From Pseudarthrobacter sp. MM222 (GTDB taxonomy: Bacteria > Actinomycetota > Actinomycetes > Actinomycetales > Micrococcaceae): 64,000 nt of DNA. Positions 1 to 14,852 of this stretch are shown one piece after another; the first letter of the stretch is position 1; every line of letters starts with the position of its first letter. A program made the position numbers and the translations under genes. The stretch is from NCBI RefSeq assembly GCF_947090775.1, contig NZ_OX352321.1:1116001-1180000 (forward strand), read 5' to 3'. The notes beneath the pieces were generated by a model. It ran no database searches, had not been told where the DNA came from, and saw nothing but the letters and a program-made list of their open reading frames with translations.

Positions 1-122
1 CGGGCTGGCTGCGCGGCACGAGCCGGGCCGCGAAGAGGTGGACCCGGCTGTAGTTCGCTCTGAGGTTCGCGCCGAAGCTGATCTCCAGCAGTGACTTCCT
101 TTGGTTGCTGGCGTCGCCGTCG

Positions 123-794
123 TCAGGCGCGGTGAGGGGCAGTGCTTGTTGCAAGGCGGGAGACAGCGGCGTCAATAGGCGTGTCGCCGCTCGTTAGTTC
201 GACGATCAGCCTCGTCAGTAGGGGTTCGCTAACGGCGGCAGCAATGAACTCCGCGACATCGTCCCGGAACACGTCGCCGTGTTCTATGGCCAGCCCGGCC
301 GAAACGCGGCCGGTGCCGGGTTCGTCGCGCAGGATGCCGGGACGAACAATGAGCCAGTCCAGGTCGGTGTGGGTCAGGTAGACGTCGGCGGTCTTTTTGG
401 TGCGCATGTAGTGTTCGAAGCTCTCGACGGGCTCCTTTTCCCGGCCGGACTCGGGGAAGGCCGAGATCAGAACGAAACGGCTTACGCCAGCGCTAGCGGC
501 AGCGTCTGCTGCTTTTTCCAGCCCGCGCCCGTCAATGGCGGTGGTCTGGTCCATGCCCGTTCCGTGAGCGCCGGCGGAGAAAACAATGGCGTCATGTCCG
601 CGGAACTTTTCGGCCAGTTCTCCGACCGAGTCAGCGATGAGGTCACCAACGACGGGTGTTGCGCCGGTGGCACTGACGGCATCAGCCTGGCGAGGGTTGC
701 GGAACATGCCGCTGACCTGGGTTCCGCCAGTGGAGAGGATCCGGCTCAAACGGCTCCCGATTCCTCCGCCGGCTCCGATGATGAATATTTTCAT
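123..794 (-). CDS. NAD(P)-binding atypical SDR (NmrA/YwnB-like)
   Basis: About 223 residues. The protein starts MKIFIIGAGGGIGSRLSRIL, a Rossmann fold with the glycine-rich dinucleotide motif at residues 7-13. LISAF at mid-protein and IVRPGIL further on are typical of the atypical SDR5 group (NAD(P)H-binding, NmrA-like), cytoplasmic enzymes of varied or unknown substrate. A strong AGGAGGG Shine-Dalgarno lies just upstream of the chosen ATG at 794; the longer open frame has no such support. It follows the flavin oxidoreductase by 13 bases, so the two are probably one operon and may act on the same electrophilic compound. The reaction cannot be assigned. Confidence 0.85.
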   Translation of the reverse strand: MKIFIIGAGGGIGSRLSRILSTGGTQVSGMFRNPRQADAVSATGATPVVGDLIADSVGELAEKFRGHDAIVFSAGAHGTGMDQTTAIDGRGLEKAADAAASAGVSRFVLISAFPESGREKEPVESFEHYMRTKKTADVYLTHTDLDWLIVRPGILRDEPGTGRVSAGLAIEHGDVFRDDVAEFIAAAVSEPLLTRLIVELTSGDTPIDAAVSRLATSTAPHRA

Positions 795-807
795 GTTGGT
801 GGCCCTC

Positions 808-1896
808 CTAGAGCGCGTAGTCGTATTGCTCGATGAAGCGTGGTGTCGCCCCGAACTGGCTGGCGGCGTTGTTGACCCACGATGGGTCGCGCAGCAATGC
901 CCGTCCGATAAAGAGTGCGTCGGCGGAGCCCGTCTCGACCAGTTCTGCCGCGTAAGCGGGGTCGGCGATGCGGCCAACTGCTCCGACCGTGATTCCGGCC
1001 TCGGTGCGTACTCGGCGTGCGTACTTTGTCTGGTAGTCCCGGTCGCGGGGAATGGGGACCGAGTCCGTTCCGCCCGAGGAGCAATCGACCAGGTCGATAC
1101 CATGCTCGGTGGCCCAGGTGGCAAGCTTCACGGTGTCCTCAATGGTCCAGGATGACCGGTTGTCGGCGGGGTTCTCTGCGATCCAGTCGGTGGTGGAAAC
1201 CCGGAGGAAGACGGGCCGGTCGTCTGCCCACACTCGGCGGACTGCATCAACGACTTCCAGGACCAGCCGGGCACGATTCTCGAGTGAGCCGCCGTATTCG
1301 TCGGTCCGGAGATTGGAAACGGGGGAGAGGAACGAGTGCAGTAGATAGCCGTGTGCCGCGTGAACTTCTGCCACCTCGAATCCTGCGCTACGGGCGCGCC
1401 GTGCTGCCTGGGAAAATGCCTCCACGACGTCCGATATATCTGCCTGCGTCAGTTCATGCGGGGCAGGGTAGCCGGGAAAGGCGACACCGCTCGGCCCGAC
1501 GGACGGCCAGCCCAGGGCGTCCTTTGCCAGTGGCGCGCCGCCCCGCCACGGACGGTCTACTGAGGCCTTGCGGCCTGCGTGTGCCAGCTGAATCGCGGGC
1601 ACAGCGCCGGCGGCCGAAATGGCGGATGCGAGACGCCGGAAGTCTTCGGTCTGGTCGTTGCTCCAGAGCCCGAGGTCATAAGGCGAAATCCGGCCCTCCG
1701 GGGAGACACCTGTCGCTTCGATCATTACCAGTCCGGCTCCACCGGCTGCACGGGCAACGTAGTGCCCCAGATGGAAGTCCGTCGGCCGGCCCGCCCGTTC
1801 TGGTTCCGGATTGGCGCTGTACGTGCACATTGGCGACATCCATGCCCGGTTGGGTACGGTCAGCCCCCTCAACGTAATTGGATCAAGAACACCCAC
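808..1896 (-). CDS. NADH:flavin oxidoreductase, Old Yellow Enzyme family (YqjM-like)
   Basis: About 362 residues, usual for the short class of OYE enzymes. Visible signatures are MSPMCTYSA near the N-terminus (cysteine that tunes FMN in YqjM relatives), QLAHAGRK, EVHAAHGYLLHSFLSP, the RTDEYGG motif and the phosphate-binding GAVGRIADP / LFIGRALL. The family reduces activated C=C bonds or nitro groups using NAD(P)H and FMN in the cytoplasm. The start is taken as GTG at 1896 because AAGAAGGGA precedes it; a longer frame exists but runs through the promoter palindrome at 1925-1950. It heads an operon with the SDR at 123-794. The physiological substrate is unknown. Confidence 0.9.
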   Translation of the reverse strand: MGVLDPITLRGLTVPNRAWMSPMCTYSANPEPERAGRPTDFHLGHYVARAAGGAGLVMIEATGVSPEGRISPYDLGLWSNDQTEDFRRLASAISAAGAVPAIQLAHAGRKASVDRPWRGGAPLAKDALGWPSVGPSGVAFPGYPAPHELTQADISDVVEAFSQAARRARSAGFEVAEVHAAHGYLLHSFLSPVSNLRTDEYGGSLENRARLVLEVVDAVRRVWADDRPVFLRVSTTDWIAENPADNRSSWTIEDTVKLATWATEHGIDLVDCSSGGTDSVPIPRDRDYQTKYARRVRTEAGITVGAVGRIADPAYAAELVETGSADALFIGRALLRDPSWVNNAASQFGATPRFIEQYDYAL

Positions 1897-1924
1897 AGAT
1901 GTTGTCCCTTCTTGAAGATTATTG

Positions 1925-1950
1925 CGTAGTACGATAACTAACGTACTACG
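1925..1950. promoter_or_regulatory. Perfect 9-bp inverted repeat, likely operator of the OYE-SDR operon
   Basis: CGTAGTACG and its exact reverse complement CGTACTACG are separated by 8 bases, 29 bases upstream of the OYE start. The arrangement is typical for a dimeric TetR- or GntR-type repressor site overlapping a promoter. No matching regulator gene sits beside it and the sequence differs from the AATGTTAACATT sites further right, so a different regulator is implied. The 1897-2142 gap contains nothing else recognisable. Confidence 0.6.
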
Positions 1951-2142
1951 ACAATCACCGTACCATCCTTTGGGGTCCGACCCTGAAATGTCGGTGTGTC
2001 GGCGTCGACGGCGTCCCCTCGCACCATAGGTGCAGGGGAGGGACCGGGCCAACTGGTGCGGGCCCGGTCCCTTGGTCAATCGGTTGAGCCGCTGCGGGCA
2101 TGCTGGATTAGCCCGGGCAGATGGCACATGCCGGTCCTTGCT

Positions 2143-2727
2143 TTAGGCGGCTTGTCCCATGCGGCCGGTGAGCCAGCGGCGGAACCGGTCACCGTGGACC
2201 ACCGGGTCAATGAGAAGGAGTTTCGTCCCCGGTTCGTTGCCGGGTTCCGTGCGGGTGTGGATGAACCAGGGCCCGGGTTCGGTGAGCGACTTCTGCAGGG
2301 CGTCGCTCAGTTCAGAAGGTGTGCTGGCGCGTAGAACTTTTAGATCCACTGACTCTGCGATGCGCCCGAGGTCAAGCTTTTGCGCGTGGGTGGGGATGCT
2401 TGCCGTTGAGGCGTAGACCCCGTTGTCAAGGAGGACGACGACGAGGTTTTCCGGCTGCAGATAGCCGGCTGTGAGGGCTGCGCCGGGGTTCATCAGCAGC
2501 GAACCGTCGCCCTCGATCACGACAGACCGCGTCACGGCTGTGCCGTTGACAGCTTGGGCGATACCTGTGGCGACTGAGACGGCCAGGCCCATAGCGTCGA
2601 GCAGGTAGAGGTGGTTGTCGCGGTCTTCGACCGAGGCTAGTTCACGGCTCGTGGCTGCGCAGGTGGCGACCACGGGAAGATCCGGAGTGGCGGCGACGAT
2701 GGTGCGGAGTGCTTCAATGCGTTTCAT
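2143..2727 (-). CDS. Thiamine-diphosphate decarboxylase, beta (cofactor-binding) subunit, ComE-like
   Basis: 194 residues corresponding to the C-terminal ThDP-binding domain of a 2-oxo acid decarboxylase. The ThDP/Mg motif is clear: EGDGSLLMNPGA, then about 25 residues later LLDNGVYAS (GDG...N pattern). The size and split from a separate alpha subunit match sulfopyruvate decarboxylase ComDE and some phosphonopyruvate decarboxylase-like enzymes. It overlaps the alpha subunit gene by 4 bases (ATGA), implying coupled translation and a heteromeric complex. With the aminotransferase upstream and aldehyde dehydrogenase in the same operon it should decarboxylate the 2-oxo acid made by transamination to an aldehyde. 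Substrate identity is inference. Confidence 0.85.
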   Translation of the reverse strand: MKRIEALRTIVAATPDLPVVATCAATSRELASVEDRDNHLYLLDAMGLAVSVATGIAQAVNGTAVTRSVVIEGDGSLLMNPGAALTAGYLQPENLVVVLLDNGVYASTASIPTHAQKLDLGRIAESVDLKVLRASTPSELSDALQKSLTEPGPWFIHTRTEPGNEPGTKLLLIDPVVHGDRFRRWLTGRMGQAA

Positions 2728-3272
2728 GCTTTTGCCTTTGCATCGGTGTGGTCAAAGAATTCCATGAGCACGACGACGGGCCGAAAGGTCATGCGGGCGT
2801 GCTGGCCGGCTTCGTGGACGGTTGCGCCCCAATCCTTCGCCGAGTTCCGACGGTCAATGCGGAAGACCGGGATGGCGGATGAGCGGAGGATTTCCGGGAC
2901 GGGCTCGGAGATGCTGTGAATCATGGAGTTGTACTCGCCGAGGCCGCCGCGCGTGTTGGCGACGATCAGCATGGGCAAGTGGTACGACACGGCCATGGTC
3001 GTGAGTGCGGTGAGTGCGTTTCCGAAGCCGTTGTCCTGCATCACGATGACACCGAATTTGTCGGCGAACGGGTACGCTCCGACAACTCCAACTGCTTCTT
3101 CTTCGCGGGAGACGGGAAAGACATTGGGTCCTCCGTCGGCGCGGCCGGCCTCCAAGAGTCCGTTGATGATGGGCGCGATGCTGGCACTGGGAACGTAAGC
3201 AATACCGTCCGGGGAGAGTGAGGTGATGGCATTGATCACCTCCTGGTGGCGGTCCTGGGTAATGGTTGTCAC
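2724..3272 (-). CDS. Thiamine-diphosphate decarboxylase, alpha subunit, ComD-like
   Basis: 182 residues forming the N-terminal pyrimidine-binding ThDP domain. VSREEEAVGVVGAY contains the catalytic Glu expected to contact the ThDP aminopyrimidine; VMQDNGFGNALTALTT and IVANTRGGLGEYN follow the pattern of sulfopyruvate decarboxylase alpha subunits. The GTG start at 3272 overlaps the stop of the aminotransferase gene (GTGA), and its own end overlaps the beta subunit start, so three genes are tightly coupled. It is predicted to form the active site together with the 2143-2727 product. Acetolactate-synthase-like or other 2-oxo acid activity is less likely because the central domain is absent. Confidence 0.85.
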   Translation of the reverse strand: MTTITQDRHQEVINAITSLSPDGIAYVPSASIAPIINGLLEAGRADGGPNVFPVSREEEAVGVVGAYPFADKFGVIVMQDNGFGNALTALTTMAVSYHLPMLIVANTRGGLGEYNSMIHSISEPVPEILRSSAIPVFRIDRRNSAKDWGATVHEAGQHARMTFRPVVVLMEFFDHTDAKAKA

Positions 3273-4489
3273 TGCTTTGCTCCTTCGGGCTGGGTGGGCG
3301 TGAGGGTCCGTGCGATGCGCTTGAGGCCCTCTGTCAGGTCATCGATGTTGCAGGCGTAGGAAATTCGGATGGCATGCGTTCCGCCTTCGGGGTCGAACGC
3401 GGTGCCAGGGACGACGGCGACGCGTTCGGTCTCGAGCAGCCGCATGGCCAGTTCTTCAGCGGGTTCTGCCAGTGCCGGAGGGTAGGTAACGTAGAAGTAG
3501 AAGGCCCCGTCCGGTTTACTCACGGAGATTCCTGCCACAGCGGAAAGGATTTTCAGGCCCGCGCGGCGGCGGTCTTCAAATTCCCGGCGCATGTCTTCGG
3601 CGTCCCCGCGTGCCGCGCGGAGTGCGGTGGCCGCGCCGGGCTGGAGAAAGGTTGGCGGGCAGACAGTGGTGTATTGGCGGACGCGCAGGGCCGGCGTGAT
3701 CAGCTCGCGGGGTCCCGCGAGCCATCCGAGCCGCCAGCCGTCCATGGCAAAGGCTTTGGCAAACCCCCCGATGACAAGCGTCCGCCGCCGGAGGTTGCCG
3801 ATAGCGGCGGGGGAGACGTGCTCGATGTCTTCGTAGACGAGGTCGGCGTATATCTCATCGGACATTAGGAGCGCATCAGTTGGTTCGAGGATCTGGGCGA
3901 GTTTCTCGATTTCGCTGTGCGAAGCCACGCCGCCGGTGGGGTTGTTGGGGGTGCAAATAATGACCATGCGGGTGCGTTCAGTCACGGCAGCCGCGATAGC
4001 GTCCAGGTCCAGGCTGAAGTTATCGGCGGCGTTCAGCGGGACCGGCACAGGGGTTGCCCCGGCGAGACGAACGCAGGACTGGTAGTGGGCCCATGCCGGG
4101 ACGGGGACGATCACTTCGTCGCCGGGACCGCAGAATGCCATCAGCGCAAGGAAGACCGCTTCATTGGCGCCGATGGTCACTATGACTTCGGTGTCAGGGT
4201 CATACTCGGTGTTGCGGCGGGACCGAAGATACTCGGCGATCGCCGCGCGAAGGTCGGGTGTACCGGCGTTTGGACCGTAGTGAACCTCACCGCGGTCCAG
4301 CGACGCGGCGGTGGCAGCTTTCACTACGTCCGGGGTGTCGAAATCAGGACGCCCGATTTCGAAGTGGAAGACTTTCTCGCCGGCAGCGTCGAGCGCGGCG
4401 GCTTTGTCGAATATCTGTCGGATGGGGGATGGCTTGATCTTACTCAACCGCTCGGCGGGGCGGCCGAGACTGGTGGTGGCTGTACTCAT
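3269..4489 (-). CDS. PLP-dependent class I/II aminotransferase
   Basis: About 406 residues, normal for an aspartate-aminotransferase-fold enzyme. Motifs seen: FEIGRPDFDTP at the N-terminus, NNPTGGV, SDEIYADLVYE (Asp that binds the PLP ring nitrogen) and the PLP lysine in GGFAKAFAMDGWRLGW; ISYACN near the end holds the carboxylate-binding region seen as R-SYA in relatives. The start is ATG at 4489 with GGAG seven bases upstream; a longer frame lacks support. Placed directly before the ComDE-like decarboxylase, it probably converts the imported amino acid to its 2-oxo acid, with 2-oxoglutarate or pyruvate as acceptor. Confidence 0.9.
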   Translation of the reverse strand: MSTATTSLGRPAERLSKIKPSPIRQIFDKAAALDAAGEKVFHFEIGRPDFDTPDVVKAATAASLDRGEVHYGPNAGTPDLRAAIAEYLRSRRNTEYDPDTEVIVTIGANEAVFLALMAFCGPGDEVIVPVPAWAHYQSCVRLAGATPVPVPLNAADNFSLDLDAIAAAVTERTRMVIICTPNNPTGGVASHSEIEKLAQILEPTDALLMSDEIYADLVYEDIEHVSPAAIGNLRRRTLVIGGFAKAFAMDGWRLGWLAGPRELITPALRVRQYTTVCPPTFLQPGAATALRAARGDAEDMRREFEDRRRAGLKILSAVAGISVSKPDGAFYFYVTYPPALAEPAEELAMRLLETERVAVVPGTAFDPEGGTHAIRISYACNIDDLTEGLKRIARTLTPTQPEGAKQ

Positions 4490-4574
4490 GTGGGGACTCC
4501 AGTAATGAAACTTTGGTTGGGGCCTGTTGGGCGGGACGATCGGCGTCTGTTGAGATCCGGGGATTTTCCCAGAC

Positions 4575-5861
4575 TTAGGGGTAGAGACCGCGGAGCGTAT
4601 GCGCTTCGGCCACGCGGTGGACAGCCAGTGCGGTGGCGGCAGAGCGCATGCTGAGCCGGCGGTCCTTGGCATATGCAGAAACTTCCCGGTATGCCGAAGT
4701 CATCCGGGCTGCGAGTTTCTCCTCAACTTCGTCCTCGGTCCACCAGTAGGCCTGGTTGCCCTGGACCCACTCGAAGTACGAAACGAGGACGCCTCCGGCG
4801 TTGGCCAGGATGTCGGGAACGACAAGCGTTCCCTTATCTGCGAGCATTTGGTCCGCGAGAACAGTGGTGGGGCCGTTGGCGCCCTCCACGACTATGCGCG
4901 CCTTTATGTCGGCTGCGTTATCCGCCGTGATGACGCCTTCCAGCGCTGCGGGGACGAGGACATCCACGTCTGCTTCCAGGACTGCATCGTGTGGGACCGG
5001 TTCGGCGCCGCGGAAACCCACCACGCTGCCGGTCAGCTTGACGTGGTCATCGAGCAGCTGGACATCTATGCCCCCACTGGCGTGAAGGGCGCCGTGTTGG
5101 TCGCTCACGTACTGGATTTTCAGTCCCGCGTCACTCAGAAACTCCGCCGCGCCCGCACCGACTTTTCCGAAACCCTGGACGGATGCGGAACTGCCGGACG
5201 CCCGGATTTTCTGGTCCTCCATGGCGGCAAGCGCACAGTGGACAACACCTCGAGAGGTAGCTGACGCCCGCCCCAATGACCCACCAATGCTGATAGGTTT
5301 GCCGGTGACCACGGCGGGGATGGTGTGTCCCTTGTTGACGGAGTAGGTGTCCATGATCCAGGCCATGGTTTGCTCGTCGGTGCCGATATCGGGTGCCGGA
5401 ATGTCCTTTTCCGGTCCGAGGATCGGCATGATTTCACTGGTAAAGCGACGGGTGAGCCGTTCGAGCTCGGGTTGGGAGTACAGGGCCGTATCGATCCGGA
5501 TTCCTCCCTTGGCGCCTCCGTAGGGAACATCAATGAGGGCACATTTCCAGGTCATCCACATGGCGAGGGCGCGGATTTCATCCAGATCGACGCCGCGGTG
5601 GTAGCGGATGCCGCCTTTGGCCGGGCCGCGGGAGATGTTGTGCTGGACGCGGTGCCCGGTGAGCAGCTCAATGTCCCCGGTGTCCCGACGCAGGGGGATG
5701 CTCACGGTCATTTCGCGGCGGGGTGCCCGAAGCATGGCGTGCTGGCCGGCAGAGTATCCGAGCAGTTCTATGGCTTCGGCGAGCTGTTGGTGGGCCGCTT
5801 CCAGAGGGGCGCCAGACTCCCGGCTGCCTACTGGTGGGGAGAATGCAGTGTTTATGGTCAT
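4575..5861 (-). CDS. Glu/Leu/Phe/Val dehydrogenase family protein (glutamate dehydrogenase-like)
   Basis: About 428 residues, the standard length of hexameric GDH-family enzymes. GPAKGGIRYH (substrate binding), PYGGAKGGI with the catalytic Lys, PAPDIGTDEQTMAW, and the Rossmann motif VQGFGKVGAGAAEFL are all present. The enzyme oxidatively deaminates an amino acid, most often glutamate, with NAD(P)+. The start is ATG at 5861, ten bases after the aldehyde dehydrogenase stop. In this operon it could regenerate 2-oxoglutarate for the aminotransferase and release ammonium, giving the cell nitrogen. Substrate preference cannot be read from sequence here. Confidence 0.9.
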   Translation of the reverse strand: MTINTAFSPPVGSRESGAPLEAAHQQLAEAIELLGYSAGQHAMLRAPRREMTVSIPLRRDTGDIELLTGHRVQHNISRGPAKGGIRYHRGVDLDEIRALAMWMTWKCALIDVPYGGAKGGIRIDTALYSQPELERLTRRFTSEIMPILGPEKDIPAPDIGTDEQTMAWIMDTYSVNKGHTIPAVVTGKPISIGGSLGRASATSRGVVHCALAAMEDQKIRASGSSASVQGFGKVGAGAAEFLSDAGLKIQYVSDQHGALHASGGIDVQLLDDHVKLTGSVVGFRGAEPVPHDAVLEADVDVLVPAALEGVITADNAADIKARIVVEGANGPTTVLADQMLADKGTLVVPDILANAGGVLVSYFEWVQGNQAYWWTEDEVEEKLAARMTSAYREVSAYAKDRRLSMRSAATALAVHRVAEAHTLRGLYP

Positions 5862-5871
5862 GGTCTGCCTG

Positions 5872-7332
5872 CTAGATCTGGATGCCGGTGTACTTGGTTT
5901 CGAGGTAGGCGTCGAGGCCCTCGGTGCCACCTTCCCGGCCCAGACCGGAAGCCTTCACGCCACCAAACGGTGCCGAAGGGTTGCTCACAATTCCCCGGTT
6001 GATGCCGGTCATGCCTGTTTCGAGGGCATCGGCCACGCGGAGTGCCCGGTTGACGTCCCGAGTGAATACGTAGGAGGCAAGGCCGTAGGGAGTGTTGTTG
6101 GCTTCGTCGACAGCTTCGTCTTCGGTATCAAATTCATAGATTGCTGCGACAGGTCCGAAGATTTCCTCTGTGCGGATATCGGCGTCGGACGGGATGCCGT
6201 GAATGACGGTGGGTTCGTAGAAGTAGCCGGCCCTGTCAGCGATGTTGCCGCCCAGGGCGCAGACTGCGCCCTTGTTTACAGCGTCATCGACAAGGGAGCT
6301 GACCTTCGCGAGCTGCTTACCGTCAATTAGCGGTCCCAGTCCCGACGTTGGATTGCTGCCATCACCCATGACGACTTGACGCATCTTGGCGGTAAACCGG
6401 CGAATGAACTCTGCCGCAATGGGCCGATGGACGAAGATCCTATTGGCTGCCACGCAGGATTCGCCTCCGTTCCTGAGTTTGGCCACCATGGCACCCTCGA
6501 GTGCCTGGTCGAGGTCGGCGTCATCAAAGACGATGAGTGGTCCGTTTCCTCCCAGCTCCATGGAGGTGTTGAGCACGCTATCTGCAGCCTGCCGCAGGAG
6601 GATCTGTCCCACCTGGGTCGATCCTGTGAAGGACACCTTCTTCAACCTGCGATCTTCCATGATCGCGGACACGACCGCAGGGGAGTCGCTGGTGGTAACG
6701 ACGTTCACTACGCCGGCAGGGACGCCACAATCATGGAGTACCTCGGCGAGCAGCAGGCTGGTCAACGGGGTTTGTGCCGCGGGTTTCAGGACGACGGTGC
6801 ATCCAGCCGCCAGCGCGGGGGCTATTTTTCGCGCCCCCATCGCCAATGGGAAATTCCAGGGAGTGATGAGAAGACACGGACCGACGGGACGCTTTGACAC
6901 CGCGATGCGGTATTCACCGCCGGGTTCCACGCCGAATTGGCCTTCTGTGTGCAGTCGGCCGGCAGACTCCGCGAACCAGCGGAAAAACCCGGCGCCATAG
7001 TCGACTTCGCCTTGGGCTTCTGCCCATGGTTTGCCCATTTCGGCGACGATTATGGCTGCAAATTCGTTTCGCCTGGCCAGTATTGCCTCATAGGCGGAGC
7101 GTAGTACGTCAGCCCGTTCACGAGCTGGGGTAGCCGCCCACGAGGTTTGCGCAGCTGCGGCGGCGTCCAGGGCGAGCAAGCCGTCGCTGACGCCGGCGTC
7201 GGACACCTCGCCTATGACCTCTTCAGTGGCTGGGTTGACCACCTTGATGGCGGCGCCGGAGGAGGCCGAAACCCAGTCTCCACCGATATACAGGTCGGTT
7301 TTGGGGAGTTGCAGGTTCTTGAGGGCGTTCAC
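5872..7332 (-). CDS. NAD(P)-dependent aldehyde dehydrogenase, succinate-semialdehyde dehydrogenase-like
   Basis: 486 residues. ALDH hallmarks: TPWNFPLAM, FTGSTQVGQ, general base Glu in MELGGNGPLIVF and nucleophile Cys in NGGESCVAANR, and APFGGVKASGLGREGG at the end. Overall it resembles GabD-type succinate semialdehyde dehydrogenases; the related enzymes SafD (sulfoacetaldehyde) and phosphonoacetaldehyde dehydrogenases belong to the same superfamily. The start is GTG at 7332 with a weak GAGAGAGA ribosome site. It is first in the minus-strand operon and should oxidise the aldehyde released by the ComDE-like decarboxylase. Both succinic semialdehyde and a sulfonated or phosphonated aldehyde remain possible. 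Confidence 0.9.
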   Translation of the reverse strand: MNALKNLQLPKTDLYIGGDWVSASSGAAIKVVNPATEEVIGEVSDAGVSDGLLALDAAAAAQTSWAATPARERADVLRSAYEAILARRNEFAAIIVAEMGKPWAEAQGEVDYGAGFFRWFAESAGRLHTEGQFGVEPGGEYRIAVSKRPVGPCLLITPWNFPLAMGARKIAPALAAGCTVVLKPAAQTPLTSLLLAEVLHDCGVPAGVVNVVTTSDSPAVVSAIMEDRRLKKVSFTGSTQVGQILLRQAADSVLNTSMELGGNGPLIVFDDADLDQALEGAMVAKLRNGGESCVAANRIFVHRPIAAEFIRRFTAKMRQVVMGDGSNPTSGLGPLIDGKQLAKVSSLVDDAVNKGAVCALGGNIADRAGYFYEPTVIHGIPSDADIRTEEIFGPVAAIYEFDTEDEAVDEANNTPYGLASYVFTRDVNRALRVADALETGMTGINRGIVSNPSAPFGGVKASGLGREGGTEGLDAYLETKYTGIQI

Positions 7333-7534
7333 GGTGTCTCTCTCGCTCTTGGGATGTAGGTGGAAGTAACAGCGGCGTGACTCTTCCGGAGGACGGCTGG
7401 CCGCGGCGGGAACAGACGACTTGCCTTCCGGGATGGATGTGGGGGCGCTGAGTCACTGCACTCTGCTGTGGGGTCGAAGTCGGTGGGATAAGTTGGGATA
7501 ACCCGCACTAGCGGCCCGAACCTCAAGCTGTAAG

Positions 7535-7546
7535 AATGTTAACATT
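7535..7546. promoter_or_regulatory. Palindrome AATGTTAACATT, probable operator of the FadR-type regulator
   Basis: A perfect 12-bp palindrome ends one base before the start codon of the GntR/FadR gene; the identical 12-mer recurs at 8403-8414 before the ABC importer. FadR-type GntR proteins bind short palindromes with a GT...AC core, which this fits. It lies in the divergent 7333-7546 region, 203 bases from the aldehyde dehydrogenase start, so autoregulation is likely and control of the operon is possible. Confidence 0.7.
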
Positions 7547-8278
7547 ATGGAATCTGGTATGGATGGAAATGTCAAGAGCAAAGCGCTGCGTGCTCCCCTA
7601 AAGCGCCGGGGCATGGCCCAGGACGTCGCCGATCGGCTACGGGCCGCGATTCTGGCCGGGGAAATAGCTCCCGGGGTGCGGCTCAACGAAGTGGACCTGG
7701 CTGCTTCGCTCTCGGTGAGCCGCGGGCCTGTCCGGGACGCTATCGTGCTGCTGCGCCAGGAAGGGCTACTGCAGGGGGACTGGCATCGCGGTTCGAGAGT
7801 CACTGTTTTCACTCGGAAAGACCTTGATGAGATTTATTCGCTGCGCTACATCACGGAACTGCTCGCCGTGCAGCGCCTCATCGAAAACCGCACCGACGCA
7901 GATCTCGAAGTTCTCAAGGCGTGTGCCGAGGACATCGAACGCGCTACGCAAGGCGGCGATCGGAAAAGGATGCTGGAGGCGGACCTGGCCTTCCACGACG
8001 CGGTCTATGCCTGTGGCGGCCACGAACGGCTGACGAACGTCTGGCTTGGTATGCGCTCCCAGATCGCCCTCTTGCTTCTGAACCGCCAGCACGGACATGA
8101 CGATTATCGTGATCTGATCGGTCCGGAACACTGGGATATGTACCGGGTCGTCAGGGACAAAAGGGCGGACCAGGCCGAGGAGCTGGTGCGAACTCACATC
8201 GAAACCGCTTTCACGCGTCTGAAAGCCGATATGGACAATGCTGCTCTCTCCAGCGACGCCGCAGCCGAGGGCAGCTGA
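7547..8278 (+). CDS. GntR-family transcriptional regulator, FadR subfamily (FCD domain)
   Basis: 243 residues. The N-terminal winged helix-turn-helix is seen around residues 22-90 (ADRLRAAILAGEIAPG, then LAASLSVSRGPVRDAI). The C-terminal FCD ligand domain carries LEADLAFHDAVYACGGHERL, with the Asp/His residues that usually bind metal and a carboxylate ligand. No Shine-Dalgarno precedes ATG 7547, so translation may be leaderless or start at ATG 7559. Divergent from the catabolic operon and upstream of the importer, it is the obvious local repressor, likely released by the imported substrate or an intermediate. Confidence 0.9.
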   Translation: MESGMDGNVKSKALRAPLKRRGMAQDVADRLRAAILAGEIAPGVRLNEVDLAASLSVSRGPVRDAIVLLRQEGLLQGDWHRGSRVTVFTRKDLDEIYSLRYITELLAVQRLIENRTDADLEVLKACAEDIERATQGGDRKRMLEADLAFHDAVYACGGHERLTNVWLGMRSQIALLLLNRQHGHDDYRDLIGPEHWDMYRVVRDKRADQAEELVRTHIETAFTRLKADMDNAALSSDAAAEGS

Positions 8279-8289
8279 GCCGGTCCAAG

Positions 8290-8331
8290 GGTTGCCGCCG
8301 AGGTTCCGGGGACACCACGCCGGCGGCAACC
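8290..8331 (+). terminator. 11-bp stem hairpin after the FadR-type gene
   Basis: GGTTGCCGCCG (8290-8300) pairs perfectly with CGGCGGCAACC (8321-8331) around a 20-base loop. It lies 12 bases after the regulator stop and before the importer promoter. There is no good T-run, so it is either a weak or factor-assisted terminator. Confidence 0.45.
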
Positions 8332-8402
8332 GCGGCCCCCTGACGGACCCCGCGGGCATCTAAACAAATTGTGACTTGCATCATCTTTCTTCATCTAGTA
8401 CA

Positions 8403-8414
8403 AATGTTAACATT
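8403..8414. promoter_or_regulatory. Second copy of palindrome AATGTTAACATT before the ABC importer
   Basis: Identical in all 12 positions to the site at 7535-7546. It lies 83 bases upstream of the chosen start of the ATP-binding gene at 8497. Two identical palindromes in one locus, both at promoter positions next to a GntR gene, make a shared regulator operator the simplest explanation. Confidence 0.7.
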
Positions 8415-8496
8415 CCTAACCTAGAACATAGGCGCTGTTGCCACCACGCAGTGGCGGTGCATGGCTGCCTGCGTCTCACAGAAACGAACGGTAGTT

Positions 8497-9276
8497 ATGG
8501 AAATCCACAACGAGGTAGCGGGCGGGCTAGACAGAGATGCTGACGCCATGATTTCGCTGCGAAGTGTGAACAAGCACTTCGGTCCCCTTCATGTCCTGCG
8601 TGACGTCAACCTTGAGGTCGGCCGTGGGCAGGTGGTTGTCATTCTGGGTCCATCAGGGTCCGGAAAGTCCACCCTGTGCCGCACGATCAACCGCCTTGAA
8701 GTCAAGGATTCCGGAACGATTTCTGTCGACGGGCGCCGCCTGCCTGACGAGGGTAAAGCCCTGACCCGGTATCGGGCCGACGTTGGCATGGTCTTTCAGT
8801 CATTCAACCTCTTTGCCCACAAGACAATTATCGAAAATGTCATGTTGGCACCGCAGAAGGTCCGGAAGCTCCCCAAAGCCGTAGCGCGTGCCAAGGGCAT
8901 GGAGCTGCTGGACCGGGTCGGTATCGCCAACCAGGCAGATAAATTGCCCGCCCAGCTCTCCGGGGGACAGCAGCAGCGAGTGGCGATCGCCCGTGCACTC
9001 GCGATGGAACCCAAGGTCATGTTGTTCGATGAACCAACCTCGGCCCTTGACCCGGAAATGGTCACCGAGGTTCTGGAAGTCATGACGTCGCTGGCTAAAG
9101 GCGGCATGACGATGCTGGTGGTCACTCACGAGATGGGCTTCGCCCGCCGGGCCGCTGACAGGGTTGTCTTCATGGCCGACGGGCAGATCCTCGAGGACAC
9201 GACGCCCGAAGAATTTTTCTCCACGCCGTCCACAGCCAGGGCAAGAGATTTTCTCGGCAAAATTCTTAGCCACTAG
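8497..9276 (+). CDS. Polar amino-acid ABC transporter, ATP-binding protein (HisP/GlnQ/GluA type)
   Basis: About 259 residues. Walker [10 protein letters not shown], signature LSGGQQQR, Walker [13 protein letters not shown] and the H-loop [14 protein letters not shown] are intact, with the short form typical for PAAT-family importers. Starts at 8461 (ATG), 8497 (ATG) or 8548 (ATG before [11 protein letters not shown]) are possible; none has a strong ribosome site. It is the first gene of an importer with the binding protein and two permeases downstream. It energises uptake of an amino acid, probably acidic or polar. Confidence 0.93.
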
Positions 9277-9307
9277 CCTTTCCCACCACACTTGAAACGA
9301 GACCACC

Positions 9308-10147
9308 ATGAATTTCAAATCGTTCGCCGCCATGTCTTCCGCGGCCGTCCTGCTTACGCTGTCTGCCACCGGATGCGGCTCGGCCGCCGCTGAAGCCAAG
9401 GGCTTAGAAGCAAGCGCCAAGGCCGGAAAACTGACCATCGGAATTTCCTTCGACCGGCCGGGACTCGGAATGAAGAACCCCGACGGAACGCTCCGGGGTT
9501 TCGACGTCGATATCGCCAAATACGTGGCCGGCAAACTGGGCGTCCAGGAATCGGCCATCACCTGGAAGGAAGCGCCGCCAGCCCAGCGGGAGAATCTGAT
9601 CCAGAACGGCCAGGTTGACTACATCGTAAACACGTACAGCATCAATGATGCTCGCAAGGAACGGATTGCGTTCGCCGGACCGTACTTCCTTGCAGGCCAG
9701 TCATTGCTGGTCCGGGCGGACAACACTGACATCACGGGACCCGAGTCGCTGAATGGCGGAAAGAAGCTATGTTCCGTGACGGGTTCAACACCAGCTCAGA
9801 ACATCAAGAAGAACTACAGCAAAGATGCCCAGCTGCAGGAATACGACACACCCTCCGCCTGTGTGGAAGCCCTGAAGAGCGGGGCCGTCGACGCGATGAC
9901 CACCGATGACATCCAGCTTGCCGGTTATGCTTCGGTCAACCAAGGAAAGCTCAAGGTCGTCGGTAAGCCGTTCAGCAAGGAAAACTATGGCATCGGTCTG
10001 AAGAAGGATGACTCATCGGGCCGCGGAAAGATAAACGATGCCATTGAAGCCATGGTCAAGGACGGCGCTTGGGAAGCGGCATTCAAGTCCAACCTGGGAC
10101 CATCGGGCTACGCCATGCCGGCTGCACCTGCCGTCGACAGGTACTAA
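9308..10147 (+). CDS. Amino-acid ABC transporter substrate-binding lipoprotein (glutamate-binding-like)
   Basis: 279 residues. The signal peptide ends in a lipobox, LSATGC, with Cys at residue 23, so the protein should be anchored outside the membrane. The mature part has the SBP type-3 pattern: GISFDRPGLGMKNPDG, GFDVDIAKYVAGKLG, then QVDYIVNTYSINDARKERI and GAVDAMTTDDIQLAGYA. The pattern is close to GluB/GlnH-type glutamate and glutamine receptors. It follows the ATPase by 31 bases and determines specificity of the importer; the ligand may be glutamate-like, including cysteate-like analogues, but this is not established. Confidence 0.93.
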   Translation: MNFKSFAAMSSAAVLLTLSATGCGSAAAEAKGLEASAKAGKLTIGISFDRPGLGMKNPDGTLRGFDVDIAKYVAGKLGVQESAITWKEAPPAQRENLIQNGQVDYIVNTYSINDARKERIAFAGPYFLAGQSLLVRADNTDITGPESLNGGKKLCSVTGSTPAQNIKKNYSKDAQLQEYDTPSACVEALKSGAVDAMTTDDIQLAGYASVNQGKLKVVGKPFSKENYGIGLKKDDSSGRGKINDAIEAMVKDGAWEAAFKSNLGPSGYAMPAAPAVDRY

Positions 10148-10171
10148 CGGCAACGCCGAACGCGGACCATT

Positions 10172-10852
10172 ATGGAAATCCTCAGCGAATACAGCCCCCA
10201 GCTGCTTAAGGCTTTCGCCACCACCATCCAGCTGACAGTTCTCTCTGCCCTCGGCGCCCTCATCTTCGGAACGTTGCTCGCCGCCATGCGGGTCTCACCG
10301 GTTTGGGCCCTCAGGACTCTTGCCACCGGATACGTCAACATAGTCAGAAACACCCCTCTGACGCTCGTGGTGCTCTTTGCCTCCTTCGGACTAGCCCAGC
10401 AGCTGGGGATCACGTTGGTCGACCCGAAATCAACCACTTCCATCACAGACAGTTCCTTCAGGCTCGCGGTTCTCTCCTTCGTGCTTTATACCGCTACCTT
10501 CGTGTGTGAGGCTCTGCGGGCGGGGGTCAACACCATCCCGGTCGGACAATCGGAGGCCGGCCGATCGCTGGGTCTTAGCTTCACTCAAGGCCTGACGCAC
10601 GTCATCCTTCCTCAGGCGTTCCGCTCGGTCGTGGGCCCCCTGGGCAGTGTACTTATAGCCCTGACCAAGAACACGACAGTTGCCTCGGTCATCGGCGTCG
10701 CCGAAGCCTCCCTTTTGATGAAGGAAGTCATCGAGAACACCTCGGCTCTGATCATCGTCGGCCTGATCTTCGCCCTGGGGTTCATGATTTTGACGATTCC
10801 GACAGGTGCCGTCTTTGGGTACCTCAGCAAGAAACTGGAGATACGCCGATGA
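10172..10852 (+). CDS. Amino-acid ABC transporter permease (GluC-like)
   Basis: 226 residues with about five predicted transmembrane helices. It carries the His/Glu/Gln permease family signature, including the EAA loop EAGRSLGLSFTQGLTHVILPQAFR that couples to the ATPase. The last four bases (ATGA) overlap the second permease gene, so the two probably form a heterodimeric membrane channel. Confidence 0.93.
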   Translation: MEILSEYSPQLLKAFATTIQLTVLSALGALIFGTLLAAMRVSPVWALRTLATGYVNIVRNTPLTLVVLFASFGLAQQLGITLVDPKSTTSITDSSFRLAVLSFVLYTATFVCEALRAGVNTIPVGQSEAGRSLGLSFTQGLTHVILPQAFRSVVGPLGSVLIALTKNTTVASVIGVAEASLLMKEVIENTSALIIVGLIFALGFMILTIPTGAVFGYLSKKLEIRR

Positions 10853-11754
10853 GCGCAGCCCCCGCAATAAGGACCCTTTACGACCTGCCTGGACCCCGCG
10901 GGCGCGCGGTAAACCTCATCGTCAGCGCGGTCAGTCTATTGGCTATCACCGCCGGCGTGCTCTGGGTCATGGCGGCTCTCAATGAGAAAGGGCAGCTCTC
11001 GGCCGATAAATGGCAGCCCTTCATCACGGCCGACATGTGGCGAACCTACCTACTTCCCGGCATCCTCGGGACTCTGCAGGCCGCCGCCCTGTCCGTAGTG
11101 CTGGCCATGGTGCTTGGAATACTGCTCGGCGTCGGACGCCTGGCCTCAAATCGGGCGCTCCGCTACATCTCTGGAGCGTTTATCGAGTTCTTCAGGGCGA
11201 TTCCACTGCTTATCCTGATGATCTTTTGCTTCCAGCTCTTTGCCAACAACTCCCTATTCCCCTCAGAGAACCTCGCATTGGCAGCTGTCGTTACCGGCTT
11301 GACCCTTAGCAACGGCGCAGTCATTGCGGAAATCGTACGAGCCGGGATACGCGCTTTGCCCCGCGGGCAGCAGGAGGCCGCCATGGCCCTCGGTTTGGGT
11401 GGCGGCCAAACGACCAGGCTCATCCTTCTCCCGCAAGCTATCACCGCCATGCTCCCACCACTCGTGGCCCAGTTGGTCGTAGCACTCAAGGACACCGCGC
11501 TGGGCTACCAAATCACCTACGTCGAGGCCGTCCGACAGGGTATCCAGGCCGGTTCAGCCTACGCCAACTACATCCCGGCCTTGCTCGTAATCGCCGCAGT
11601 TATGATTTCAATCAACCTCGCACTCTCAAGGCTCGCCACCGTCGTGGAGAAGAGAATCCGTAACGGTCGGAAGACAGCTGCTCTCCCCGGACCAGAAACG
11701 GTTCTGGTCGTGCAGGAAGCAGAGGAGTCGGTGCTGCCGGCCTCCCGAACCTAG
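10849..11754 (+). CDS. Amino-acid ABC transporter permease (GluD-like)
   Basis: 301 residues. An N-terminal helix is followed by a periplasmic stretch (DKWQPFITADMWRTYLLPG) and the permease core, with EFFRAIPLLILMIF and the EAA loop QQEAAMALGLGGGQTTRLILL. A hydrophilic C-terminal tail of about 40 residues follows the last helix, as in actinobacterial GluD proteins. It overlaps the preceding permease start by 4 bases and ends the importer operon; the SDR gene follows after 146 bases. Confidence 0.93.
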   Translation: MSAAPAIRTLYDLPGPRGRAVNLIVSAVSLLAITAGVLWVMAALNEKGQLSADKWQPFITADMWRTYLLPGILGTLQAAALSVVLAMVLGILLGVGRLASNRALRYISGAFIEFFRAIPLLILMIFCFQLFANNSLFPSENLALAAVVTGLTLSNGAVIAEIVRAGIRALPRGQQEAAMALGLGGGQTTRLILLPQAITAMLPPLVAQLVVALKDTALGYQITYVEAVRQGIQAGSAYANYIPALLVIAAVMISINLALSRLATVVEKRIRNGRKTAALPGPETVLVVQEAEESVLPASRT

Positions 11755-11900
11755 ACCTGGGTCTAATCGATCCTGCCTGCACCACCTGCGGACAGCGACT
11801 TCGCAGGCGGACGCCGCCGAAACGGTGGCTTTGGCGGTCGCGCACAAAACTCTGATAAAACGCGCGGAGGTGTATACCGCCAAGATGATCGTGGGCGGTA

Positions 11901-12734
11901 ATGCGCGGAGAAGTCCCCGAACAAGGCATTTCACGCCCAAAGCACTCGAATTGTCCAGTCAGAAATGAGTTGATTCCCCTGTCCAGAGCCATTCTCGTCA
12001 CCGGTGCCGCGCGCGGCATTGGAAAAGCAGTAGCCGACAAGTTCGCGCGTTCCGGCGACATCGTGATGCTGCATTACGGCCAAAGCCACGCTGCCGCCCA
12101 GGACGCCGTCCAACACCTGCCCGGCCAGGGACATGGGTTGTTCAGCGCCGACCTCCGGGATCCCCGGCAGATTCAGGAACTGGTGGCCGAGACCGTAAAG
12201 CAACTTGGCCGCGTAGACGTTCTCGTTAACTGCGCAGCGGCTCCCATGGTCGCCCACCCCATTGAAAAGGTCAGCTTCGAGGACTGGCAAAACTCGTGGA
12301 AAGCCATGCTGGAAGTCAACCTGACAGGGGCCGCCAACATTACCTACTGCGCTGCTCAACAGATGATTCTTCAAGGCGACGGAGGCCGCATCATAAACAT
12401 TGGCTCCAGAGGAGCGTCTCGCGGCGAACCGGAGCATCCGGCGTACGGCGCAAGCAAAGCGGCGCTGCACTCCATGGGGCAGTCCATGGCCGTGGCCCTC
12501 GCCCCCCACAATGTTGCCGTTACTACTGTGGCACCCGGGTTCGTCGCCACTGAGAGGAACAGCGGGCGACTCGCAGGGGCCGAGGCCGCCGATATTCTGA
12601 GTCAAAGCCCACTCGGTCGTGTGGCTACACCTGAGGAGATAGCTGCGGCCGTATATTTCCTTGCGTCCACCGAGGCAATGTGGGCCACCGGTGCAGTCAT
12701 CGATCTTAACGGCGCCTCGTATCTGAGGGCATAA
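11901..12734 (+). CDS. Classical SDR-family oxidoreductase (FabG-like)
   Basis: Up to 277 residues. Classical SDR motifs are present: LVTGAARGIGKAV, VNCAA, IINIGSRGAS and the active-site pair YGASKAALHSM, plus the C-terminal LASTEAMWATGAVIDLNGA. The start is uncertain: ATG 11901 gives about 23 extra residues before the fold, while a TTG at 11970 would give the usual 254 residues; neither has a clear ribosome site. The location after the importer suggests a role in the same degradation pathway or an accessory alcohol/ketone step, but the substrate is unknown. Confidence 0.85.
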   Translation: MRGEVPEQGISRPKHSNCPVRNELIPLSRAILVTGAARGIGKAVADKFARSGDIVMLHYGQSHAAAQDAVQHLPGQGHGLFSADLRDPRQIQELVAETVKQLGRVDVLVNCAAAPMVAHPIEKVSFEDWQNSWKAMLEVNLTGAANITYCAAQQMILQGDGGRIINIGSRGASRGEPEHPAYGASKAALHSMGQSMAVALAPHNVAVTTVAPGFVATERNSGRLAGAEAADILSQSPLGRVATPEEIAAAVYFLASTEAMWATGAVIDLNGASYLRA

Positions 12735-13009
12735 ACTTCTGCGGCTTCGGCGTTGAATTTCTGTCCTCTCTCTGCGTTTCAGTGCACCGCGGCGACAAGC
12801 CCCCGTGCCTGAGGCTGTGAGCACGTCCATCACCGGCGCTGTCCTCGGCGGCCTTGTGCCGGGACTCGTGCTGCCACTCGATCTCAAAGAGGCTGTCACC
12901 GAACTAAGCTGCGTCGTATCAGCCGGGGGGTGCCCTCTTCGCTCTCACCCTCGCAACACGCCGAAGCGGCTGCCCCTCGGCCACCGCTTCAGGAAGACAA
13001 CAGAAATGA

Positions 13010-13207
13010 CTAGGAGTCGCCGGCCCGTGGCAGCACTTTGACCGCGACGAACTCGTCAAGGTCGGTACCGGCGGCAAAGTACTCTTCGAGGGAAGCGTCG
13101 ACGACAAAACGGATGACGGAAAGATTGTCTGGATCCTTCCCCTCAACGGTCATCGCCGGCTCATCCACATCGAAAATGCCCTGGATTTGGCCAAATTGAA
13201 CGCCTAA
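13010..13207 (+). pseudogene. Start-less C-terminal gene fragment, unknown family
   Basis: The frame ending in TAA at 13205-13207 encodes PWQHFDRDELVKVGTGG, then KVLFEGSVDDKTDDGKIVW and ends DLAKLNA. The composition (balanced charged residues, hydrophobic periodicity) is that of genuine protein, yet an in-frame TGA at 13007 and the absence of any start codon show the 5' part is missing. I do not recognise the family. It is probably the tail of a gene cut by recombination. Confidence 0.5.
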
Positions 13208-13324
13208 TGGCCCTTGCCATCAAATGGCCAAAAATTCCAGCAATTAAAGTCGAGCCCGGTATGCGTTGCGAGGCTATCCCGATACCAAGTACAGCGCATC
13301 GAGCTCTAGGAGCTGACCCAGACC

Positions 13325-14842: not shown

Positions 14843-14852
14843 CCGGCGGGCG

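What the first reader, a model, noticed from the sequence alone, without database searches (positions are those of the whole stretch)
2143..11754. Possible new amino-acid degradation route through a split ThDP decarboxylase
One locus combines a polar amino-acid importer, a class I aminotransferase, a GDH-family enzyme, a two-subunit ComDE-like 2-oxo acid decarboxylase and an aldehyde dehydrogenase, with a FadR regulator. Known pathways use parts of this set (cysteate or taurine via sulfopyruvate/sulfoacetaldehyde, phosphonoalanine via phosphonopyruvate, glutamate via succinic semialdehyde), but I know of no described cluster with exactly this content and no Xsc, phosphonatase or sulfoacetate exporter is nearby. 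The expected end product would be a plain, sulfonated or phosphonated carboxylate.
Basis: partly seen in the sequence, partly recalled or inferred. Interest (0 to 1): 0.78.

Follow-up and report, generated by a model that had tools for sequence, protein, structure and literature searches.

The report
New split-decarboxylase route for acidic amino acids
A soil bacterium carries what looks like one co-regulated gene set that imports an acidic amino acid and probably turns it, through a two-part vitamin B1 enzyme of a so far unstudied branch, into succinate, which would be a side road around a key step of central metabolism.

Summary
The gene content at 2143-11754 is confirmed. On the minus strand: aldehyde dehydrogenase, glutamate dehydrogenase, aminotransferase, and both subunits of a split ThDP decarboxylase. 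Diverging: a FadR/FCD regulator and a GluABCD-like importer. Two perfect 12-bp palindromes (AATGTTAACATT) stand before the regulator and the importer and nowhere else in the window. They recur at the same places in two related loci, so the set looks like one regulon.

The decarboxylase is not a member of the curated ComDE or phosphonopyruvate decarboxylase families. It misses their cut-offs and lies in a separate clade (29 of 43 tree rows, 100/99) with its own motifs. Synteny shows that aminotransferase, decarboxylase and aldehyde dehydrogenase are the core; the GDH is a local addition. The aldehyde dehydrogenase is GabD/SSADH-like and keeps all three succinic-semialdehyde carboxylate ligands. 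Two relatives sit near 5-oxoprolinase genes or an L-2-hydroxyglutarate oxidase.

Best reading: acidic amino acid to 2-oxoglutarate (or a close C5 analogue) to succinic semialdehyde to succinate; no sulfonate or phosphonate is needed. The substrate is inferred, not shown. Sister-clade relatives sit with sugar-acid or beta-hydroxyamino-acid dehydratase-like genes. New variant of a known kind; moderate interest.

The parts
2143..2727 (-). beta (PP-domain) subunit of split ThDP decarboxylase
   Evidence: PF02775; TIGR03846 123 bits (cut-off 221.5), TIGR03297 113 bits (cut-off 312.5); AlphaFold2 model pLDDT 90.9, best Foldseek hit RhiF 9iz3
2724..3272 (-). alpha (PYR-domain) subunit of split ThDP decarboxylase, GTG start, with SREEEAVG segment holding the presumed catalytic Glu (role recalled)
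   Evidence: TIGR03845 78 bits (cut-off 148); RhiE 9iz3_A E 2.8e-9
3269..4489 (-). class I aminotransferase
   Evidence: PF00155; best solved relatives aspartate/aromatic aminotransferases
4575..5861 (-). glutamate dehydrogenase, accessory to the module
   Evidence: PF00208/PF02812; 37 of 37 solved chains at E<=1e-80 are glutamate dehydrogenases; only match in the genome at E<=1e-10
5872..7332 (-). GabD/SSADH-type aldehyde dehydrogenase; SSA-carboxylate ligand equivalents R168, R287, S450; catalytic C293
   Evidence: TIGR01780 536 bits (cut-off 646); 8 of 11 solved chains at E<=1e-100 named succinate-semialdehyde dehydrogenase
7547..8278 (+). FadR-type GntR/FCD regulator
   Evidence: PF00392 + PF07729
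7535..7546 (.). perfect palindrome AATGTTAACATT, candidate operator between divergent ALDH operon and fadR
   Evidence: 2 exact matches in 64 kb, 0.02 expected with 1 mismatch allowed, 0 of 100 shuffles with 2
8403..8414 (.). second copy of the palindrome, upstream of the importer genes
   Evidence: same positions in L043 and L044
8461..9276 (+). polar amino-acid ABC importer ATPase
   Evidence: NF007027 GlnQ 310 bits (cut-off 379); 72% to the genome's own GluA-like paralogue
9308..10147 (+). periplasmic-type binding protein of the Asp/Glu class
   Evidence: TIGR01096 (below cut-off), PF00497; R94 and T109 match side-chain carboxylate ligands of M. tuberculosis GlnH (PMC6069109)
10172..10852 (+). 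ABC permease 1
   Evidence: 39% to the genome's GluABCD-like paralogue
10849..11754 (+). ABC permease 2
   Evidence: 42% to the genome's GluABCD-like paralogue

Best explanation
A FadR-controlled catabolic regulon for an acidic amino acid. The ABC importer takes up a glutamate-like amino acid. The aminotransferase, helped in this genome by the GDH that recycles glutamate to 2-oxoglutarate, turns it into the 2-oxo acid. The alpha/beta ThDP enzyme, a new clade of the ComDE/RhiEF superfamily, decarboxylates a dicarboxylic 2-oxo acid, most likely 2-oxoglutarate, to succinic semialdehyde. The GabD-type dehydrogenase oxidises that to succinate, which enters the TCA cycle with no further genes. The net effect is a bypass of 2-oxoglutarate dehydrogenase. 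Shown: gene content, families, shared candidate operator, conserved core, separate clade, conserved SSADH ligand residues. Inferred: every substrate, the direction of flow, and the regulator-operator pairing.
For: (1) Core synteny and a shared palindrome tie importer and enzymes together. (2) ALDH: best family model SSADH; 8 of 11 solved chains at E<=1e-100 are SSADH; the human SSADH carboxylate ligands Arg213/Arg334/Ser498 (PMC10599462 and PMC11353897, passages read) are kept in 6 of 6 ALDHs found in the window's subclade. (3) S. spinosa L003: the same AT-alpha-beta is followed by PxpA, whose open frame can start at a TTG overlapping the beta stop by 4 nt, then PxpB/C-like genes and a PF07286 D-glutamate cyclase domain gene. 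(4) L056: L-2-hydroxyglutarate oxidase over its curated cut-off (500 vs 299 bits) within 4 kb of alpha/beta, with a TAXI-TRAP importer between. (5) SBP keeps two of three direct side-chain carboxylate contacts of GlnH. (6) All 31 clade loci have Ile or Leu at the Gln of the STGGQ motif; 25 of 28 non-clade relatives keep Gln.
Against: 2-Oxoglutarate is already a TCA intermediate, so a dedicated decarboxylase is energetically wasteful. If glutamate were the substrate, GDH alone could deaminate it and the conserved aminotransferase would be superfluous. Relatives in the sister subclade sit with enolase-superfamily dehydratase-like genes (L072 and L105 scored, L104 by N-terminus) or with a threo-3-hydroxyaspartate ammonia-lyase-like enzyme plus RidA (L107 scored, below cut-offs; L106, L109, L110, L113 by N-terminus), which suggests other 2-oxo acids there. 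Those sister loci use another ALDH subfamily that lacks the Arg334 equivalent (0 of 12). L002 lies within about 8 kb of sulfonate-type genes (TauD, luciferase-like monooxygenase, NMT1-type binding protein). Compared with the genome's own GluB-like protein, the SBP has Arg50 for Gln and Pro182 for Tyr, so the ligand may not be glutamate itself. TIGR01780 is below its cut-off. Whether the genome has OGDH, Kgd or other SSADH genes was not searched.
Confidence: 0.5

Rival explanations
1. The substrate is a substituted or longer glutamate analogue: 4-hydroxyglutamate via 4-hydroxy-2-oxoglutarate to malate semialdehyde and malate, or 2-aminoadipate via 2-oxoadipate to glutarate.
For: Explains why both AT and GDH are present and why the SBP pocket differs from the GluB-like paralogue. 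A. baumannii malic semialdehyde dehydrogenase uses the same Arg/Arg/Ser triad (PMC11353897, passages). L043 has homoserine-dehydrogenase-like and HpcH/HpaI-type aldolase genes on the same strand beyond the ALDH. Needs a decarboxylase, unlike 2-oxoglutarate.
Against: 5-oxoprolinase and L-2-hydroxyglutarate oxidase neighbours point to unsubstituted C5 compounds. No glutarate-handling gene was recognised at the locus; not searched genome-wide.
Confidence: 0.2
2. Cysteate route: cysteate to sulfopyruvate to sulfoacetaldehyde to sulfoacetate, which is exported.
For: Homology of alpha/beta to ComDE; a GabD-type sulfolactaldehyde dehydrogenase has the same two arginines, proposed to bind its sulfonate (PMC10599462, passages), so the ALDH does not exclude it; L002 lies near sulfonate-type genes.
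Against: ComE and ComD cut-offs missed; Gln of the STGGQ motif absent in 31 of 31 clade loci; SafD model 260 bits against a 700 cut-off while SSADH gives 536; no Xsc over cut-off in the genome, in a search without a positive control.
Confidence: 0.12
3. Aspartate route: aspartate to oxaloacetate to malonate semialdehyde to malonate. Would fit AT plus GDH and tartrate- or hydroxyaspartate-type dehydratases of sister loci.
For: AT nearest solved relatives include aspartate aminotransferases; L107 lyase scores best to threo-3-hydroxyaspartate ammonia-lyase (331 vs cut-off 452).
Against: Oxaloacetate needs no such step; no malonate-activating gene was recognised, though not all neighbours were annotated; the ALDH is SSADH-like; 5-oxoprolinase and 2-hydroxyglutarate oxidase contexts do not fit.
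Confidence: 0.1
4. Phosphonoalanine route: phosphonoalanine to phosphonopyruvate to phosphonoacetaldehyde to phosphonoacetate.
For: Closest solved enzyme is the phosphonopyruvate decarboxylase RhiEF; the regulator scores 115 bits to a phosphonate-associated PhnR model (cut-off 271.5).
Against: TIGR03297 cut-off missed by 200 bits, motif differences as above, PhnAcAld_DH model 263 bits against 636; no phosphonate gene recognised at the locus.
Confidence: 0.03

Closest known systems
RhiEF, phosphonopyruvate decarboxylase of Bacillus subtilis ATCC 6633 (PDB 9iz3/9iz4)
   Same: Two small subunits carrying PYR and PP domains; best sequence and fold match
   Different: 30% identity in the Foldseek alignment of beta; has GSMG and STGGQRT where the window has DAMG and STASIPT
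ComDE, sulfopyruvate decarboxylase
   Same: Split alpha/beta ThDP decarboxylase
   Different: The window misses both curated cut-offs; different operon partners
LumKL (riboflavin degradation, PMC12746152) and AzcBC (PDB 9u8q, alpha-imino acid decarboxylase)
   Same: Other split ThDP decarboxylases recently given new substrates
   Different: Weak sequence similarity for AzcBC (E 1.6e-8 for beta); LumKL sequence not compared; unrelated pathways
2-oxoglutarate decarboxylases: cyanobacterial KGD (PMC10418658) and actinobacterial Kgd/OdhA
   Same: Would catalyse the same reaction followed by SSADH
   Different: Single long chains of other ThDP families (MaKGD 550 aa; Kgd/OdhA recalled); not compared by sequence here
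GluABCD glutamate importer and GabD SSADH
   Same: Family-level relatives of the importer and ALDH
   Different: Importer is a diverged paralogue with an altered pocket; ALDH is below the TIGR01780 cut-off

Membership tests
Sulfopyruvate decarboxylase ComDE | Scores over TIGR03846 and TIGR03845 cut-offs | tested here: not met
   123 of 221.5 and 78 of 148 bits
Sulfopyruvate decarboxylase ComDE | Decarboxylates sulfopyruvate | not testable with these tools
   needs assay
Phosphonopyruvate decarboxylase (AepY/RhiEF) | Scores over TIGR03297 cut-off and keeps the STGGQ motif seen in AepY (L088, L089) and RhiF | tested here: not met
   113 of 312.5 bits; STASIPT instead
Split ThDP 2-oxo acid decarboxylase superfamily | alpha with catalytic-Glu segment, beta with GDG(X)nDN Mg/ThDP motif, adjacent genes | tested here: met
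   SREEEAVG; EGDGSL...LLDN; 4-nt gene overlap; fold match of beta to RhiF. Motif roles recalled; activity not tested
2-Oxoglutarate decarboxylase (functional class) | Forms succinic semialdehyde from 2-oxoglutarate | not testable with these tools
   inferred from context only
Succinate-semialdehyde dehydrogenase (GabD type) | Arg213/Arg334/Ser498 ligands of human SSADH | tested here: met
   R168, R287, S450
Succinate-semialdehyde dehydrogenase (GabD type) | Over TIGR01780 cut-off | tested here: not met
   536 of 646 bits
Asp/Glu-specific solute-binding protein (GlnH/GluB class) | Arg147, Thr162, Trp232 side-chain contacts of GlnH | tested here: inconclusive
   first two kept (R94, T109), third is Pro182
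Glutamate dehydrogenase | ELFV domains, nearest solved relatives all GDH | tested here: met
   below NCBIfam equivalog cut-offs

The most novel reading that the evidence does not exclude
A further, independent class of 2-oxoglutarate (or 4-hydroxy-2-oxoglutarate) decarboxylase, derived from the ComDE/RhiEF two-subunit lineage, forms in actinobacteria an inducible bypass of the tightly regulated 2-oxoglutarate dehydrogenase, fed by its own importer; sister clades have retuned the same enzyme to other dicarboxylic 2-oxo acids from sugar acids and hydroxy-amino acids.
Probability: 0.4. Interest if true: 0.66.

Novelty: new variant of a known kind. Interest (0 to 1): 0.5.

Why it matters
It would add a new clade, recognisable by sequence motifs, to the small set of split ThDP decarboxylases. 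Several listed members are now named sulfopyruvate or phosphonopyruvate decarboxylase in databases and so are probably misannotated. If the substrate is 2-oxoglutarate it gives actinobacteria a regulated detour around a central control point, and it makes a clear, cheap enzyme test possible.

Tried and rejected
Cysteate and phosphonoalanine routes: weighed by family cut-offs, pocket motifs and a genome search for Xsc (no positive control among the 14 control genomes); kept as low-probability rivals. Oxaloacetate: kept at 0.1. I looked for one 2-oxo acid that fits every relative locus and found none, so substrate uniformity across the whole clade is not claimed.

Residue mapping: I placed the Arg213 equivalent on the wrong arginine. 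One search corrects this with the Trp162-Asn163-Phe164/Arg171 anchor given in PMC10599462. One search ended with a script error on its last row (L039, a distant control) after printing all clade rows. Ser498 was placed by the alignment to E. coli GabD and by my recall of the human C-terminus. GlnH residues were mapped through the DIGSN 99-103 anchor of PMC6069109 onto the alignment.

Paper searches were aimed at the cluster or its reaction; two returned no paper, and of 24, 6, 1, 1, 19 and 198 papers in the others I saw 20, 6, 1, 1, 10 and 15 listed, none of whose titles or opening abstracts describes it. Searches served the residue tests. All cover open-licence PMC only. Passages were read in PMC12746152 (also its section 11), PMC12141560, PMC10418658, PMC10599462, PMC6069109 and PMC11353897; the others I saw only as listings.

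Not done: a genome-wide look for OGDH, Kgd or other SSADH genes; modelling of the alpha/beta complex; ligand docking; the context of the second clade copy of G1093 (C8).

L071 is a second contig copy of L070; L070 and L074 come from one genome. The tree holds 29 clade rows (L053, L074 and duplicate or short stretches left out) and 14 others: 13 of the 28 non-clade rows, plus L036 standing for L018. Its program warns of long branches (L036, L031, L087), so the place of L087 next to the clade is unsure.
Full report
Observation. [quoted passage not shown] Diverging from them stand a FadR-type GntR/FCD regulator (7547-8278) and a polar amino-acid ABC importer (8461-11754). The aminotransferase/alpha and alpha/beta pairs overlap by four bases, the GDH starts ten bases after the ALDH stop, and 85 bases separate GDH and aminotransferase, so the five enzyme genes look like one operon.

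Is it one unit? I think so, on two independent grounds. First, synteny: L043 and L044, from genomes the tool places in the same genus, carry the ALDH, both ThDP subunits, the aminotransferase, the regulator and all four importer genes at 70-82% identity, with the ALDH gene in another place and without the GDH. L070, from another family, has aminotransferase, alpha, beta and the regulator (57-77%), with a tripartite tricarboxylate-type transporter instead of the ABC importer (TctC domain found, the other parts judged by N-terminus). Second, a perfect palindrome AATGTTAACATT occurs exactly twice in the 64 kb, at 7535-7546 (between the divergent enzyme operon and fadR) and 8403-8414 (before the importer). 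With one mismatch allowed, 0.02 matches are expected, and none of 100 shuffles had two. The two copies are at the same places in L043 and L044. In L070 one copy, extended to a 24-bp perfect palindrome, stands before the aminotransferase gene. Of 113 loci, the 12-mer is found only in L043, L044, L070, its duplicate L071, and L058, which is the window's own stretch; L002, L003 and L045, which show no gene closely matching this FadR, lack it. I infer that it is the FadR operator and that importer and enzymes form one regulon.

How common is it? The ThDP beta subunit is accessory. Own genome included, matches were found in 5 of 206 genomes of the genus at E <= 1e-30; 5 of 295 of the family at 1e-10, of which one (G277) is only a distant relative; 6 of 248 of the order at 1e-25; and 13 of 394 of the class at 1e-10, where all but the window's own are distant, at 40% identity or less. 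Further: 9 of 57 in the genus of G892 and 12 of 345 in the order of G643, both at 1e-35. In PLSDB plasmids 83 records matched, none at 60% identity or more. Of 404 proteins found in the protein database at 1e-10, 120 were listed; named ones are called sulfopyruvate decarboxylase, phosphonopyruvate decarboxylase or ThDP-dependent enzyme. One relative, L002, lies on a plasmid of Pseudarthrobacter sp. NamE5. The first 17 kb of the window have 61.9% G+C against 67.9% for the rest, which would fit acquisition.

What is the decarboxylase? The beta subunit scores 123 bits to sulfopyruvate decarboxylase beta (cut-off 221.5) and 113 to phosphonopyruvate decarboxylase (cut-off 312.5); the alpha subunit scores 78 (cut-off 148) and 36. 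It is therefore a member of neither curated family. In the whole genome it is the best match to TIGR03846; the other seven matches lie at 47.8 bits or less (in that search 2 of 14 control genomes passed the cut-off). The predicted beta structure (pLDDT 90.9) is closest to RhiF, the PP subunit of the phosphonopyruvate decarboxylase RhiEF, then to AzcBC, an alpha-imino acid decarboxylase. In a tree of 43 beta sequences the window lies in a clade of 29 rows with 100/99 support on a long stem. Its own subclade has 8 rows (92/66), or 7 without L004 (99/98), and the sister subclade has 21 (100/98); the program warns of long branches for L036, L031 and L087. The alpha motif MQDNGFGN is present in 31 of 31 clade loci. 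At the position of Gln in the STGGQ motif of the beta subunit, 31 of 31 clade loci have Ile or Leu. Of the 28 non-clade relatives, 25 have Gln; the exceptions are L029 (not aligned there), L030 (Ile) and L032 (Arg). That these segments line the substrate pocket follows from my recall of other ThDP enzymes; it was not tested here.

What does the aldehyde dehydrogenase say? Of the 11 solved chains at E <= 1e-100, 8 are named succinate-semialdehyde dehydrogenase, two simply aldehyde dehydrogenase and one alpha-ketoglutaric semialdehyde dehydrogenase. The three groups that hold the carboxylate of succinic semialdehyde in human SSADH (Arg213, Arg334, Ser498; PMC10599462 and PMC11353897, passages) correspond to R168, R287 and S450 and are kept in all 6 ALDHs found in the window's subclade (window, L002, L003, L043, L044, L045); the other two loci of that subclade, L004 and L070, showed no ALDH within 6.5 kb. 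A caution: a GabD-type sulfolactaldehyde dehydrogenase has the same two arginines and a malic semialdehyde dehydrogenase the whole triad (same papers), so the triad shows a small anionic aldehyde, not succinic semialdehyde alone. In the sister subclade, 12 of 23 loci have an adjacent ALDH, 6 have a different one 4-6 kb away and 5 have none within 6.5 kb. The three adjacent ones that I scored (L051, L072, L107) fit two SSADH models best, below cut-off (NF006915, NF010575). All 12 keep the Arg213 equivalent and a Ser or Thr at 498, and none keeps Arg334.

What does the importer say? The ABC genes are paralogues of the genome's own GluABCD-like cluster (72, 45, 39 and 42%). Against M. tuberculosis GlnH (PMC6069109, passages) the binding protein keeps the alpha-amino and carboxylate contacts (S111, R116, D200) and two of the three direct side-chain carboxylate contacts (R94, T109), but has Pro182 for Trp232. 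Against the paralogue it has Arg50 for Gln and Pro182 for Tyr, both conserved in L043 and L044. So the ligand should be an acidic amino acid, perhaps not glutamate itself.

What do other contexts say? The aminotransferase accompanies alpha and beta in 5 of the 8 loci of the window's subclade (window, L003, L043, L044, L070) and, at 57%, in L113 of the sister subclade. For C5 compounds: in Saccharopolyspora spinosa (L003) alpha and beta are followed by PxpA (over a PxpA model cut-off), whose frame can begin at a TTG that overlaps the beta stop codon by four bases, then by PxpB-like (below cut-off) and PxpC-like genes (over a domain model, below the PxpC model), a metabolite/H+ symporter-type gene and a D-glutamate cyclase domain gene. 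In L056 an L-2-hydroxyglutarate oxidase scores 500 bits (cut-off 299) within 4 kb of alpha/beta, with a TAXI-TRAP importer between. L045 and L051 have D-2-hydroxyacid dehydrogenase family genes, below all cut-offs. Against a single substrate: L072, L104 and L105 have enolase-superfamily sugar-acid dehydratase-like genes (L072 and L105 scored, below cut-offs; L104 by its N-terminus), and L107 has a RidA-like gene plus a threo-3-hydroxyaspartate ammonia-lyase-like enzyme, both below cut-offs, with lookalikes of the latter in L106, L109, L110 and L113 judged by their N-termini only. L002 has TauD, luciferase-like monooxygenase and NMT1-type genes within about 8 kb. Of the nine ~50% loci examined from the genus of G892, seven (L052-L055, L073-L075) show no aminotransferase or aldehyde dehydrogenase beside alpha/beta; three of them have an SDR-family gene there.

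Mechanism. The simplest scheme that needs no further genes is: import of an acidic amino acid; transamination, with GDH regenerating 2-oxoglutarate in this genome; ThDP decarboxylation of 2-oxoglutarate to succinic semialdehyde; oxidation to succinate. All substrates are inferred. The weak points are that 2-oxoglutarate does not need such a step and that glutamate does not need both an aminotransferase and a GDH. 4-Hydroxyglutamate (to malate semialdehyde and malate) or 2-aminoadipate remain real alternatives. Cysteate and phosphonoalanine are disfavoured by the missed cut-offs and motif changes; the genome has no Xsc over cut-off, though that search had no positive control.

Known or new? Split ThDP decarboxylases are known: ComDE, RhiEF, LumKL, AzcBC. 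2-Oxoglutarate decarboxylases are known as single long chains (PMC10418658, passages; actinobacterial OdhA/Kgd from the listing and recall). I saw no paper describing this cluster or a split 2-oxoglutarate decarboxylase among the hits listed by searches, which cover open-licence PMC only. I rate it a new variant of a known kind.

Noticed in passing
window 1-17000: G+C is 61.9% against 67.9% in the rest of the window, so the locus may sit in an acquired stretch.
   Followed up: partly
window 123-812: An NmrA-like gene (name from its look, not scored) whose relatives (69-71%) also lie near the module in L043 and L044.
   Followed up: no
window 808-2127 and 13554-14633: Two Old Yellow Enzyme family flavoproteins (45% identical) lie one on each side of the module (first scored; second recognised by similarity).
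   Followed up: no
window 47452-53399: Nitrilase-like, APC-permease-like and FAD amine-oxidase-like genes that resemble an amino-acid 2-monooxygenase/amidase degradation set; judged from N-termini and recall only.
   Followed up: no
L036 1663-4354: A distant (26-31%) alpha/beta ThDP pair followed by an ALDH with quite different pocket residues, beside a LysR-like gene; possibly another undescribed split-decarboxylase route.
   Followed up: partly
L087: Leisingera plasmid comDE (as annotated) beside a HisD-family gene, SDR, alcohol dehydrogenase and alpha-hydroxy acid oxidase, which may be a dihydroxypropanesulfonate/sulfolactate cluster (interpretation recalled).
   Followed up: no
L043 4839-6980: HpcH/HpaI aldolase and homoserine-dehydrogenase-like genes on the same strand beyond the ALDH of the module; a homoserine-dehydrogenase-like gene also follows the ALDH in L107.
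   Followed up: partly
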